A stretch of 64,000 nt of DNA, from assembly GCA_020073665.1 (NCBI GenBank), contig JAIQEU010000012.1:1-64000 (forward strand), read 5' to 3'. The stretch is from Terriglobia bacterium (GTDB lineage: Bacteria; Acidobacteriota; Terriglobia; Terriglobales; Acidobacteriaceae). Below are positions 41,866-52,289 of this stretch, piece by piece. The position numbers and the translations under genes were made by a program. Under the pieces are notes generated by a model, which saw only the letters and a list, made by a program, of their open reading frames with translations, did not search any database and was not told where the DNA came from. The first letter of the stretch is position 1, and every line of letters begins with the position of its first letter.

Positions 41866-44220
41866 TTGGAAAATTCTGACCACATTTCCGGCCCACGCGC
41901 CCCGGTCTACTGGCGCGTGGAAGGCAGTCTGCTGGACCTGACCACGGTCCGGCCGGTGGCCTTCTTTACCTGGAATTCGCAGACCTTTCTGGAGCGCTGG
42001 CTGCGCCGGGGCCTGGTCTTTGTCATGGCTGTACTGCGGCCCATTCTCTATGCGCTTCATCGCGTCTTTGCTACCCGGGTGGTACACGCGGTGCTGCGCG
42101 GCACCAGTCGCGACCGGCTGGATCTTTTGGGCGAAGAATACTTCCAGTACAAGCTGAAGCCCTACCTGAAGCCCGATGGAGTGCGTTTGCTCCGCGAGGC
42201 CGCGGGGTCGGGGGCGGAGGTAGTGTTGGTCAGCCAGAGTCTGGACCACGTGATGCGTCCGCTGGCGAAGCACCTTGGCGTGAAATGGTTGATCGCCAAC
42301 CGTCTGGAGTTCCGTGATGGTACGGCAACCGGCCGATTACTTTCGCCGGTCATCCGCCCGCGCGGACTGTTTGCGCGGATTACGGGCACCGGACCGGACG
42401 GACGACGCTCACCGGAGAGATTATTTCGCGAACTGGGTTTGCCCGGGGCGGCCGCACTCCAGGAAGCAGCGTTTTCAGCGGAACGACAGTTGCCGGCGCC
42501 CGAGCGCCCGATCGTCCATTTCGACGGAGGCCGTCAGACGCCGCCGCTTTCGGTTCGCCAGGCGCTCGCCGGGAAGCGCATCATGCTGATCGGTGTGACC
42601 GGCTTCATCGGCAAGGTGTGGCTGGTCAATACCCTGATGTATCTACCCGAGGTGGGACGCATTTATTTGCTGATCCGGCGCCAAAAGGGCAATCCCGCGC
42701 TGCGGCGTTTCGAGAGGCTGGTGGAGGAATCGCCCGTCTTCGATCCGTTGTTCGAGCGTTTCGGTACTGGGCTGCCGCGGTTCCTCAGCGAACGCGTGGA
42801 GGTGGTGGAAGGGGACGTCTGCCAACCGGGGCTGGGCCTGGAGCCTGAAACATTGGTGAAGTTGCAGCGGGACCTTGACCTGATCATTAACAGCTCGGGT
42901 TTGACCGACTTCAATCCTGACCTGCGGGACGCGCTGGCCACCAATGTGGACGCCGCGGTCAACGTCGTGAAGTTTGTCCGCCAGTCCGACCACGCCGGAT
43001 TGCTGCACCTTTCCACCTGTTACGTCGCCGGTACCAGCGATGGCCGGGTCAACGAGACCCTGCGTCCGAATTACGTGCCGGCCGGGGTAAGGGATTTTGA
43101 TGCGGAGCAGGAATGGCGCTCCCTGCACGACTTTATCCGGCAGGCGGAAAAGAAAGCGGAGAGTGCGGAGATAACCGAAGAACTCCGGCGCCAGGCCTTC
43201 GATAAGGAGCATGCAGCCAAAGACCTGCATGGAGCGGCATTGGAGAACCAGGTTCGTAAGAACCGCATCCGCTGGCTGCGCGAGCACCTGACCGAAGCCG
43301 GCATGAAACGGGCCAACGAACTGGGCTGGCCCAACACCTACACGCTTTCCAAGAGCCTGGCCGAGTCGCTCATTTACAAATACGGCACCGGACTGCCGAT
43401 TGCCATTGTGCGCCCGGCTATCGTCGAAACTTCGCTCGAACAGCCATTTCTGGGTTGGAACGAAGGCATCAATACTTCAGCTTCGCTTTCGTATCTGCTG
43501 GGGACTTACTTCCGGCAACTGCCCTCGAACGAGCGTAAGCGCCTGGACATCATCCCTGTGGATTCGGTGTGCCGCGGCATGACCCTGATTGCCGCCGCCG
43601 TCATCGAAGGCCGCCACGATGCCATGTACCAGCTGGCGACCTCAGTCACCAATCCCTGCGACATGGGACGCTCCATCGAGCTGACTTCTTTAGCGCACCG
43701 CAAACACTACCGCGCCCAGGAAGGCCTGGAGTACTGGCTACGCCTGCGATTTGATGCCATCTCGGTCTCGAAAGAGCGTTACCAGCGGATGTCGGCGCCG
43801 GCCCAGAAAGCGATCATCAAGTCGATCCAGCGGATCATGTCCCCGCTGCCTCTGCGCAAGCCGCCGCTGGCCCGCGCCGAGCGCAGCCTGGAACGAGTGG
43901 AGAAACTGATTCAACTGTTCGAGCCATTCATTCTTCACAACGAGCATGACTTTGTGGCCGACAACGTGGAGAAGCTCTCGTACGCCCTGGTGCCGGAGGA
44001 GAAGGCGGCTTTCGGATACAGCACCCGCTCCATTGACTGGTGGGAGTACTGGATCAACATTCATATCCCGGCGTTGCGCAAGTGGACATACCCGCTGATT
44101 GAAGGTCGTCCGCTGGAGGCCCGCCCCTCGCGCCAGTTTGAGATCGCTGCCGCCGCAGGTGATGGCAACGGCGAGACCGTAAAGACAGGAACCAACGGAG
44201 CCACGTGGCGATATTCCTGA
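41866..44220 (+). CDS. HAD-like domain fused to fatty acyl reductase
   Basis: 784 residues. Residues 12-200 resemble a HAD-IB phosphatase, but motif I is RVEGSLLDL instead of DxDGTL, so both catalytic aspartates are gone; motif II serine (VLVSQS) remains. Residues 230-620 are a fatty acyl-CoA reductase of the male-sterility/NAD-binding-4 type: GVTGFIG (243-249) for NAD(P), HLSTCYVAG and YTLSK catalytic residues. It reduces an activated fatty acid to an aldehyde or alcohol. It heads a co-directional cluster and overlaps the next reductase by 16 bases. TTG 41866 is the likely start; no ATG fits. Confidence 0.82.
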
Positions 44221-45338
44221 CCGGTTCGACCGGATACATCGGCGCACACGTCGCCGCCAACCTGCTGGAAGGGCATGGCGCCTCCCTAAACCTGCTGGTG
44301 CGGGCGCGCGACCCTCACGAGGCGGAGGTGCGCTTGTGGCAGGCGTTGCAACTGCACATGGATTTTTCCCGCTTCTACGAATATCTGCAGACCCGCATAA
44401 GGATTTTTCGTGGCGACCTGACCGGGGCAGGGTTCGGTCTGTCGGACAATGACTACGACCGGCTGATCCACACCTCCGATTCCGTCATTCATTGCGCGGC
44501 GTCGTTGAATCGCAAGTCGGAGAAAAGCTGCCTGAACGTCAACCTGCGCGGCACCCTGGAAGTGCTGCAACTGGCCATGCGCTCGCACCATTATCACGGG
44601 CTGCGGCGTTTCAGCCACGTGAGCACGGTGGCGGTTGCCGGCAAGCGCAGCCACGAAGTAGTCACTGAAGACCGGTCGATTGACTGGGAGCGCTCCGACT
44701 ACGATCCCTATGCACGCACCAAGAAATTCTGCGAGCACATGATCCGGCAGCTTCTGCCCGAAGTGCCGCTCACCATCTTTCGTCCCAGCATCGTGCTCGG
44801 CGACAGCCGTTACGCGGCTACTACCCAGTTCGACATGGTGAAGGCCTTTGTTTTTTTGGCGGGCCTGCCGGTGCTGCCGTTTCGCGCCAGCGACAAGATC
44901 GACATTGTAAACGTGGACTTCGTCGCCGATGCCATTGCCGCCCTGCATCAGAAAGAACGTCCGCTGTACGACACGTATCATCTTTCTTCCGGCACCGGGT
45001 CGCAGACCTTTGGCCAGTTGACCACCGCGCTGGCAGCGGCGCAGAACAAACGCAAGCCGATCTTCATGCCGCTCCTGGGAAGGCCTTTTGACGCGACCGT
45101 CAACACCCTGGCCAACCGCAAGGGTTCGATTGGCTACGGTGCTTCGCTGATGAAGGTGTTTATGCCCTACCTGATGTGGAACACGGTTTTTGACAACACC
45201 CGGGTCACCAGTGAACTGGGACGCAAGCCGGTGCCTTTCTCGCAATACAGCTACCCACTCCTGAAGTTCAGCCGCGAGTCCAACTTTACTTACAACTACC
45301 AGGGCTGGCCCGCGACTGTGGGAGGGTCCGCCGCATGA
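44205..45338 (+). CDS. second NAD(P)-dependent reductase of the acyl reductase/epimerase type
   Basis: 377 residues from a GTG overlapping the upstream gene. [18 protein letters not shown] binds NAD(P); VIHCAASLN and a YARTK catalytic pair follow; [10 protein letters not shown] and [11 protein letters not shown] are typical of the NAD-binding-4/thioester-reductase group. It likely reduces a thioester or an aldehyde or works on the lipid produced by the first reductase. The stop overlaps the pyruvyl-transferase start by four bases, so the three first genes are coupled. Confidence 0.82.
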
Positions 45339-51390: not shown

Positions 51391-52289
51391 GCGAGGCATT
51401 CCTGGCGATAGTAAATCCCGCGGCGGGCGGCGGACGTTGCCGTAAACTCGTTGGGCCAGCCCTCGATCGTTTGCGCGCCGGCGGAGTCAAGTTCGAGATG
51501 GTGGAGACTAGCGCGCCGGGCCAAGGCACCGAGTTCGCACGTGACGCTTACGCCAAGGGCTACAGAAAATTTATTGCTGTCGGCGGAGACGGCACTTCCT
51601 ACGAAATTGTGAACGGCCTTTTCCCAGCCGCCGGCAGCGGCGAGCGCCCCACGCTGGCCTTCCTGCCTCTCGGCACCGGAAATTCCTTCCTGCGCGACTT
51701 CAGCGATCGCGGCGTGGAATACGCTGCGGAAGCGCTGCTGGCCGGACGCGCGCAACCTTGCGACGTCCTGCGCTTGAAGCACAAGGAGGGAGTGATCCAT
51801 TACATCAACCTGCTGAGCATGGGATTTGCCGCGGACGTGGCCACGCTGCGTGCCCGGCGCTTCAGCGCTTGGGGAGAACTGGGATACCGGTCCTCGATTT
51901 TTATCTGCCTCGCCCGGTTCCGCCGTCGCCCGTTCCCATTGCGCGTGGACGGGCGAGAAGAGATCGACCGCCGCCGGTGTCTGTTCCTCACCTTCAACAA
52001 CAGCAAATTCACCGGAGGCACGATGATGATTGCCCCTAATGCCGAAGTGAACGATGGCTTGATCGAATACGTGCGCTGGGGACCCATCGGGCGCGTGGGC
52101 CTGGTCCGTAACCTGTCGACACTGTATGACGGAACTCATATCCATCATCCGCTGGCCGAGCGGCAGGCGGTAAGACGAGTCGACTTCCAACTGGACACAC
52201 CGGTTGACATCATGGTGGACGGAGAGGTGTTTACTCTGCATTGCCAGACGCTCGATGTGCTGCCGTCCGCGCTGAACGTCGTGGTATAA
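51387..52289 (+). CDS. diacylglycerol/lipid kinase family protein
   Basis: 300 residues from GTG 51387, overlapping the stop. The catalytic fold shows [29 protein letters not shown] (nucleotide-binding GGDGT) and [14 protein letters not shown]; the C-terminal beta domain follows. The family phosphorylates diacylglycerol, sphingoid bases or similar alcohols with ATP. In this cluster it would phosphorylate an alcohol made by the reductases or a glycerolipid; this is inference. Confidence 0.9.

What the first reader, a model, noticed from the sequence alone, without database searches (positions are those of the whole stretch)
41866..52289. Candidate undescribed lipid-biosynthesis cluster
Seen: eight co-directional genes (HAD-reductase fusion, second reductase, pyruvyl-transferase-like protein, acyl ligase, crotonase, ACP, second acyl ligase, lipid kinase), several overlapping by 4-16 bases, after one promoter. 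Known: acyl-ACP/CoA ligases plus ACP feed fatty acyl reductases, giving aldehydes or alcohols; diacylglycerol-type kinases phosphorylate lipid alcohols. The Myxococcus ElbD ether-lipid enzyme combines related reductase and ligase functions. Inference: the cluster makes a reduced fatty chain (ether lipid, wax or sugar-lipid) characteristic of this phylum, perhaps with a pyruvylated head group. No acyltransferase or alkyl-DHAP synthase is inside, so the set differs from known ether-lipid clusters.
Basis: partly seen in the sequence, partly recalled or inferred. Interest (0 to 1): 0.8.

Follow-up and report, generated by a model that had tools for sequence, protein, structure and literature searches.

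The report
Conserved Acidobacteriota reduced-lipid gene cluster
Soil Acidobacteriota share a conserved block of eight (in many families nine) genes that looks like an undescribed assembly line for an unusual lipid, made by turning a fatty acid into an alcohol and probably adding phosphate and a pyruvate group; what it makes has not been shown.

Summary
Eight co-directional genes (41866-52289) encode a fused HAD-fatty-acyl reductase (FAR), a second reductase, a pyruvyl-transferase-like protein (PyvT), two acyl ligases, a crotonase, an ACP and a lipid kinase. Of 81 distinct loci with room downstream, 81 keep the first four genes and 71 keep all eight; 70 of those 71 are collinear. In 299 genomes of the class, fused FAR and PyvT occur in the same 74. 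Catalytic residues are essentially invariant, but the HAD half lacks its nucleophile in all 106 readable distinct proteins. Other families carry a ninth gene, a PlsC acyltransferase, after the kinase; the family of the window lacks it. A tetraether-synthase-like radical SAM gene, near-universal in the class, lies within about 250 nt upstream in five loci, though not in the window. The set works like the Elb ether-lipid system but fails Elb membership tests. Best reading: an undescribed pathway for a reduced, phosphorylated, probably pyruvylated lipid. The product is untested; all 80 named loci are MAGs. Ten paper searches found no description.

The parts
41866..44220 (+). Fused protein: N-terminal HAD-like pseudo-phosphatase (about residues 1-225) + alcohol-forming-type fatty acyl reductase (NAD_binding_4 + Sterile)
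   Evidence: Pfam PF12710 profile 12-154/189, PF07993 3e-51, PF03015 1e-9; best solved relative 7eoz fatty acyl-CoA reductase E 4e-59; Tyr492/Lys496 107 of 107; HAD nucleophile Asp 0 of 106 readable
44205..45338 (+). SDR2: second reductase, thioester-reductase-type SDR; no Sterile domain reported
   Evidence: PF07993 2e-46; TIGR01746 133.7 bits, below its cut-off of 213; Tyr169/Lys173 99 of 99
45335..46744 (+). PyvT: PF04230 pyruvyl-transferase-like protein, GT-B fold, predicted PEP-binding residues R176, R346, H348, R368
   Evidence: PF04230 7e-11, 43 bits over cut-off 25.3; model pLDDT 84.7; alignment to WcaK; R176/R346/H348 96 of 96; only PF04230 match in the genome at E<=0.001
46795..48444 (+). 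ACS1: AMP-binding acyl ligase (AMP-binding_C_3 type); longest ORF starts at 46675 but ATG 46795 is likelier
   Evidence: PF00501 7e-55; A10 Lys 85 of 87, two gaps; repeat 46759-46782 lies before this ATG
48441..49244 (+). ECH: crotonase with both hydratase glutamates
   Evidence: PF00378 1e-40; Glu125 and Glu145 79 of 79; best solved match EchA8
49256..49525 (+). ACP: discrete acyl carrier protein (likely ATG at 49283)
   Evidence: PF00550 3e-13; phosphopantetheine Ser49 78 of 78
49681..51390 (+). ACS2: AMP-binding long-chain acyl ligase
   Evidence: PF00501 9e-68; A10 Lys 75 of 77, two gaps
51387..52289 (+). LipK: DAGK/YegS-type lipid kinase
   Evidence: PF00781 7e-26, PF19279 1e-25; TIGR00147 over cut-off; GGDGT Asp 73 of 74, one gap

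Best explanation
An operon that builds a reduced-chain lipid. Shown: linked, co-inherited genes; intact catalytic residues in the two reductases, both ligases, ACP, crotonase, kinase and the PEP pocket of PyvT; a HAD domain that has lost its catalytic residues. Inferred steps: ACS2 and/or ACS1 adenylate a fatty acid and load it on the dedicated ACP; the crotonase sets a 3-hydroxy or 2-enoyl group; SDR2 and FAR reduce the thioester to aldehyde and alcohol; the alcohol-derived lipid is phosphorylated by LipK and acylated, by the cluster's own PlsC in other families and presumably by a general PlsC in the window's family; PyvT adds a PEP-derived pyruvyl group to free hydroxyls, giving an anionic lipid. 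The chain may be shared with the class's membrane-spanning lipids, since a tetraether-synthase-like gene sits just upstream in some relatives. The HAD half probably survives as a binding or scaffold module, because its altered motif W-R-V-E-G-S is conserved rather than decayed.
For: FAR, SDR2, PyvT and ACS1 in 81 of 81 distinct loci with room, all eight in 71; 70 of 71 collinear, divergence correlated among the eight proteins, r 0.71-0.94 (no housekeeping control). Fused FAR and PyvT in the same 74 of 299 genomes, none with only one at E<=1e-20 (one further PyvT match at E 8e-4, G467, was set aside). The first four genes also stay together in 7 of 7 loci from genomes sharing only the phylum, so PyvT belongs with the reductases. 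Catalytic residues. PlsC after LipK in 19 of 72 loci with room, an ortholog in 10 of 10 non-f1 carriers tested against 0 of 14 f1 carriers. The genome's two best NAD_binding_4 matches are the cluster genes (177 and 160 bits; seven others 23-58).
Against: No product, expression or biochemical data; order of steps and substrates are inference. In 10 of 81 loci with room one or more second-half genes are missing, weak or moved, so the ACP/kinase half is not always beside the core. PyvT hits no solved sequence at E<=0.01; its fold is a general GT-B and the 50 rows shown are mostly sugar epimerases and glycosyltransferases, so a glycosyltransferase is possible. The PF04230 enzymes in the passages I read act on sugars. 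An MFS transporter gene upstream in 24 of 95 loci is unexplained. The Tes-like gene is in 291 of 299 genomes whether or not they have the cluster and is not in the window. DUF2229 (Ger/PlsA-type) genes are no commoner in carriers (9 of 24) than in f1 non-carriers (4 of 11).
Confidence: 0.5

Rival explanations
1. It is specifically an Elb-like ether-glycerolipid pathway, perhaps for ether-bound membrane-spanning lipids: the fatty alcohol or aldehyde becomes an alkyl ether on glycerol, LipK makes the alkylglycerol phosphate, PlsC adds the second chain, a Tes-like protein joins chain ends; PyvT only decorates.
For: HAD, FAR, ACS, ACP and (outside f1) PlsC functions match parts of the elb operon (PMC9131029, passages). 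A LipK-profile hit lies in 3 of 8 elb-type loci (L171, L175, L178) and in L179-L181. A radical SAM protein close to archaeal tetraether synthase (7tol, E 5e-62) lies on the same strand about 105-240 nt upstream of the FAR in L041-L044 and L118, and beside the HAD gene in compact locus L179. Within the class 39 genomes have another FAR and none also has this cluster. Odds raised from 0.25 to 0.28 because of the Tes-like neighbour.
Against: No Lar_N gene or ElbE-type epimerase, a dead HAD, ACS2 and PlsC not grouping with ElbD's domains. The exclusivity follows families, so it may be plain phylogeny. Tes-like presence does not track the cluster: 73 of 74 carriers, 218 of 225 others. The five close loci may reflect one ancestral arrangement. 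The ether-forming step is unknown even for ElbD.
Confidence: 0.28
2. It makes a diffusible fatty signal or specialised metabolite, with the crotonase acting like RpfF.
For: Crotonase with both glutamates beside ACP and ligases; patchy presence, 16 of 37 in the family; an MFS transporter upstream in 24 of 95 loci.
Against: The crotonase's best NCBIfam models are ordinary enoyl-CoA hydratases; the model I recall as RpfF-like (PRK08788) gives 108.8 bits, under its cut-off of 177. A lipid kinase and PlsC point to membrane lipid.
Confidence: 0.09
3. It makes a glycolipid or surface-glycan lipid anchor in which PyvT pyruvylates, or transfers, a sugar.
For: PF04230 enzymes in the passages read act on sugars; GT-B fold close to GT4 enzymes such as PimA.
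Against: No other sugar enzyme, flippase or polymerase family among the eight proteins or the recurrent neighbours scanned; PyvT sits in the invariant core with FAR, SDR2 and ACS1.
Confidence: 0.1
4. It is a fatty-acid salvage or wax-ester operon without a dedicated lipid.
For: Ligases, crotonase and FAR occur in such pathways (general knowledge).
Against: No acyl-CoA dehydrogenase, thiolase or wax synthase family among the eight proteins; a dedicated ACP, a kinase and PyvT have no place in it.
Confidence: 0.03

Closest known systems
Myxococcus xanthus elb operon (ElbA-E; ElbD = FAR-ACS-ACP-acyltransferase)
   Same: FAR, acyl ligase, ACP, HAD-family protein and SDR encoded together; relatives of the window cluster also have PlsC. 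FAR and HAD have homologs in loci of ElbD/ElbB architecture in Acidobacteriota.
   Different: Separate genes; HAD fused to FAR and catalytically dead; SDR2 is thioester-reductase-like, not the epimerase type; no Lar_N gene; adds PyvT, crotonase, a second ligase and LipK. Compared with Acidobacteriota loci of ElbD architecture, not with the Myxococcus sequence itself.
Compact HAD + FAR loci of Acidobacteriota with LipK (L179-L181; HAD and FAR also in L051-L053)
   Same: FAR and HAD; L179-L181 also carry LipK, and L179 a Tes-like gene
   Different: No ACP, acyl-ligase or PyvT profile hits in L179-L181; HAD unfused with intact nucleophile; FAR forms its own clade.
PF04230 ketal-pyruvyltransferases (CsaB, WcaK, Pvg1p)
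   Same: PEP-binding positions R148/R306/H308/K328 of CsaB appear to correspond to R176/R346/H348/R368 here, placed by motif, spacing and an alignment to WcaK
   Different: 21% identity over 246 columns to WcaK; sits in a lipid cluster; 58 bits against the CsaB equivalog cut-off of 213.

Membership tests
Elb ether-lipid operon | Multidomain ElbD (FAR-ACS-ACP-acyltransferase) in one protein | tested here: not met
   Separate genes; no acyltransferase family in the window's eight proteins
Elb ether-lipid operon | HAD-superfamily protein ElbB beside FAR, here taken to be active | tested here: not met
   HAD-like domain present, but nucleophile Asp in 14 of 14 unfused HADs and 0 of 106 readable fused ones; GDSxxD-like motif 0 of 131 fused ORFs, duplicates included
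Elb ether-lipid operon | ElbE-type epimerase/dehydratase SDR | tested here: not met
   SDR2 profile gives 21 bits on the epimerase of elb-type locus L171; SDR2 is PF07993 2e-46
Elb ether-lipid operon | ElbC (taken as the Lar_N gene of Acidobacteriota loci, by position) | tested here: not met
   Lar_N in L171, absent from the eight proteins
Elb ether-lipid operon | Alkyl/vinyl ether lipids formed | not testable with these tools
   Needs lipid mass spectrometry
Alcohol-forming fatty acyl reductase | NAD_binding_4 + Sterile domains, Ser/Tyr/Lys and TGxxG motif | tested here: met
   7eoz E 4e-59
PF04230 pyruvyltransferase | Profile match over curated cut-off and PEP-binding residues | tested here: met
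   43 bits vs 25.3; R176/R346/H348 96 of 96; R368 invariant in 17, Lys in WcaK
PF04230 pyruvyltransferase | PEP-dependent pyruvyl transfer | not testable with these tools
   Needs enzyme assay
HAD phosphatase | DxD nucleophile and acidic motif IV | tested here: not met
RpfF-type DSF synthase | Model score over cut-off (PRK08788; link to RpfF recalled) | tested here: not met
   108.8 bits vs 177

The most novel reading that the evidence does not exclude
The cluster makes a sugar-free anionic lipid: the crotonase gives a 3-hydroxyacyl-ACP, SDR2/FAR reduce it to an alkane-1,3-diol (or the alcohol becomes an alkylglycerol, possibly of a membrane-spanning chain made by the Tes-like enzyme), and PyvT ketalises the diol with pyruvate from PEP: a pyruvate-ketal head group on a lipid hydroxyl pair instead of on a sugar, with LipK and PlsC adding phosphate and a second chain. 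Pyruvate ketals on a non-sugar polyol exist (ribitol 2,4-ketal of a Nocardiopsis teichoic acid, PMC6801904, passage), but I know of no such membrane lipid (recalled; the searches returned no paper).
Probability: 0.17. Interest if true: 0.85.

Novelty: new variant of a known kind. Interest (0 to 1): 0.6.

Why it matters
Acidobacteriota lipids underlie temperature proxies, yet only some genomes have elb genes and how the others make ether or membrane-spanning lipids is open (PMC11868695 and PMC10087280, passages read). A gene set with a fixed four-gene core gives a defined operon to express and a lipid to look for. It ties a pyruvyl-transferase-type enzyme to lipid rather than polysaccharide chemistry, and shows a HAD phosphatase turned into a conserved non-catalytic module fused to a reductase. 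The neighbouring Tes-like gene in some relatives offers a second handle on membrane-spanning lipids of this class.

Tried and rejected
Split ElbD: rejected. In the tree of acyl ligases ACS2 is its own clade and does not pair with ElbD's ligase domain, and the cluster PlsC profile scores only 25-43 bits on eight elb-type proteins and L050 against roughly 74-131 on ordinary single-domain PlsC proteins. LipK as shared ancestry: its profile gives 127-149 bits on kinases of elb-type and compact loci against 78 on the genome's second DAGK, suggestive only. KAS III as a core gene: between ECH and ACP in L164 and L166 but not in L170 of the same family. Recurrent neighbours were scanned late: MFS_1 (24 of 95 loci), a small kinase matching SKI (17), a radical SAM (11), metallo-beta-lactamase (10), chromate transporter (9), PHO4 (6); none is general enough to be a part. 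The radical SAM is Tes-like but near-universal in the class, so it is not a member of the cluster. DUF2229: no link. Structure of the HAD-FAR fusion: pLDDT 69.9, not used. Foldseek and VIA searches of PyvT gave only a general GT-B fold; Pvg1p was not among the rows shown. A plasmid search with PyvT found nothing. Spread outside Acidobacteriota could not be tested: the one genome-contig scan kept the best 80 of 234 relatives, none with a title naming another phylum.
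Full report
Observation. The window lies on a 5.4-Mb genome in 62 contigs; its nearest named relatives are Acidobacteriota MAGs, many titled Terriglobia, Terriglobales or Acidobacteriaceae. Two details change: ACS1 most likely begins at ATG 46795, because a short repeat (CCACGGAGACACGGAGGCACGGAG) lies between PyvT and that ATG; and 'one promoter' is a single consensus match where 4.3 are expected by chance.

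Conservation. I searched 61 genomes, own included, for the first protein, took surrounding DNA, added 80 named loci and marked genes with profiles built from the cluster itself. Loci with identical reductase sequence were merged, leaving 107 distinct FARs. 81 have at least 8.3 kb downstream in view: FAR, SDR2, PyvT and ACS1 pass threshold in 81, all eight in 71. The ten others are told in full: ECH weak in L093; ACS2 weak in L113 and L130; no LipK hit in L164; and two to four second-half genes missing, weak or moved in L125, L165, L167, L168, L169 and L250. Of the 71, 70 are collinear on one strand; L036 has an internal inversion. Pairwise divergence of the eight proteins is correlated, r 0.71 to 0.94, as expected for a unit, but I had no housekeeping control.

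Distribution. In the phylum draw 11 of 297 genomes have the full-length fusion, 7 of them sharing only the phylum with the window. In those 7 the first four genes are together in all; ACP+ACS2 are in view in 5, in two of them (L167, L168) on the opposite strand next to the cluster. In the class draw the fused FAR (over 600 bits) and PyvT (E<=1e-20) occur in the same 74 of 299 genomes; this is at genome level, and in a few genomes the two lie on different contigs. One more genome, G467, has a PyvT match at E 8e-4, set aside. Another FAR (E<=1e-20) is in 39 further genomes, none overlapping; this follows family lines, so the Fisher p of 1e-5 overstates it. In the window's family (f1) 16 of 37 sampled genomes have the cluster.

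Ninth gene. A PF01553 acyltransferase, about 245-276 aa in the clearest frames, directly follows LipK on the same strand in 19 of 72 distinct loci with at least 1.2 kb in view. 17 of the 19 come from genomes of families other than f1; two (L131, L133) are named MAG loci whose family I did not establish. The 53 without it include the window and the 13 first-set f1 loci with room; the rest are named MAG loci of unestablished family. Searching whole genomes, orthologs (E<=1e-129) are in 10 of 10 non-f1 carriers, while 14 of 14 f1 carriers have only matches of 5.5e-27 to 3.3e-36, the level of 11 f1 non-carriers. So the acyltransferase belongs to the wider cluster and was probably lost in the window's lineage.

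Parts and chemistry. FAR: NAD_binding_4 plus Sterile, Tyr492/Lys496 107 of 107, best solved relative a fatty acyl-CoA reductase. SDR2: Tyr169/Lys173 99 of 99. P-loop Lys: 86 of 87 ACS1 (one X), 77 of 77 ACS2; A10 Lys 85 of 87 and 75 of 77, the rest gaps. ACP serine 78 of 78, both crotonase glutamates 79 of 79, kinase GGDGT Asp 73 of 74 with one gap. HAD half: 14 unfused HADs of Acidobacteriota all have the nucleophile Asp and the DSxxD motif, 14 fused ones have neither; over 107 distinct fused proteins the nucleophile position is Arg 103, Ser 2, Lys 1, one gap. The changed motif is itself conserved, which suggests a kept non-catalytic role. PyvT: the only PF04230 match in the genome; GT-B model with pLDDT 84.7 from 17 sequences. 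CsaB work places PEP binding at R148, H308 and K328 by mutants, with R306 from docking (PMC10435577, passages). An alignment with WcaK (E 8e-6, 21% identity) puts R176, R346, H348 and R368 at the matching motifs; the step from WcaK to CsaB is mine, by motif and spacing. R176, R346 and H348 are invariant in 96 sequences, R368 in 17; CsaB K328R is still active.

Relation to Elb. [quoted passage not shown] how the ether forms is unknown. In the phylum draw 22 of 297 genomes have FAR hits of at least 398 bits inside open frames of 1,462-1,573 aa; L171 has HAD, Lar_N, FAR-ACS-ACP-acyltransferase and an epimerase in a row. None of the 22 is among the 11. In the FAR tree the fused FARs are one clade (100/99) apart from the ElbD-type and compact-locus FARs; the tree is unrooted with some long branches. 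The acyl-ligase tree does not join ACS2 to ElbD. So the cluster works like Elb in parts but is not a member.

A late lead. Scanning recurrent neighbours showed a radical SAM protein whose best solved relative is the archaeal tetraether synthase, 7tol, E 4.6e-62 over 500 residues. It lies on the same strand about 105-240 nt before the FAR in L041, L042, L043, L044 and L118, and 1.6-6.6 kb before it in several others; one also lies beside the HAD gene of compact locus L179, where it is 73% identical to that of L043. It is not in the window; the genome carries it on another contig. It is in 291 of 299 genomes of the class, 73 of 74 carriers and 218 of 225 others. It is therefore a general gene of the class, perhaps for membrane-spanning lipids, that lies close to the cluster in a few relatives; a hint of a shared pathway, not proof.

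What is shown and what is inferred. Shown: linkage, conservation, co-occurrence, intact or lost active sites, the ninth gene. Inferred: substrates, order of steps, pyruvylation of a lipid and any ether bond. Of papers I read passages only. Subscription journals are mostly not held, so 'undescribed' is limited to that library.

Noticed in passing
46759-46782 and 49536-49559: A short repeat (CCACGGAGACACGGAGGCACGGAG) sits in two intergenic gaps of the operon; four pattern matches in the window against 0.34 expected. It inflates the ORF start of ACS1.
   Followed up: partly
L118:5721-7937 and similar in L041-L044; own genome G000 C13:10348-12450: A Tes-like (tetraether synthase) radical SAM gene, near-universal in the class (291 of 299) and in five loci about 105-240 nt upstream of the FAR.
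   Followed up: partly
52241-54050: Downstream a small WCPHC-motif protein (no Pfam match), VKOR and an esterase; such genes recur after LipK in 29, 39 and 38 of 95 distinct fusion loci.
   Followed up: partly
L166:7139-8128, L164:12716-13717: A KAS III (FabH-type) gene inserted between ECH and ACP in two of three loci of one family outside the class (Pfam run on L166 only).
   Followed up: partly
L166:2367-4552: A DUF4435 gene and an AAA_15/AAA_21 ATPase gene, a pair that looks defence-like to me, inserted between ACS2 and LipK.
   Followed up: no
L179, L180, L181: A compact locus type: unfused HAD with intact nucleophile, a 500-630 aa FAR and a LipK, with an epimerase-type SDR identified in L180 and L181.
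   Followed up: partly
L029 (G014 contig C19): A second, diverged copy of the first genes of the cluster in one genome, with reductase and SDR split into pieces.
   Followed up: no
own genome, G000 C26, C43, C31, C7: Adenylation domains in open frames of up to 3,052 aa suggest NRPS-like genes in the same genome.
   Followed up: no
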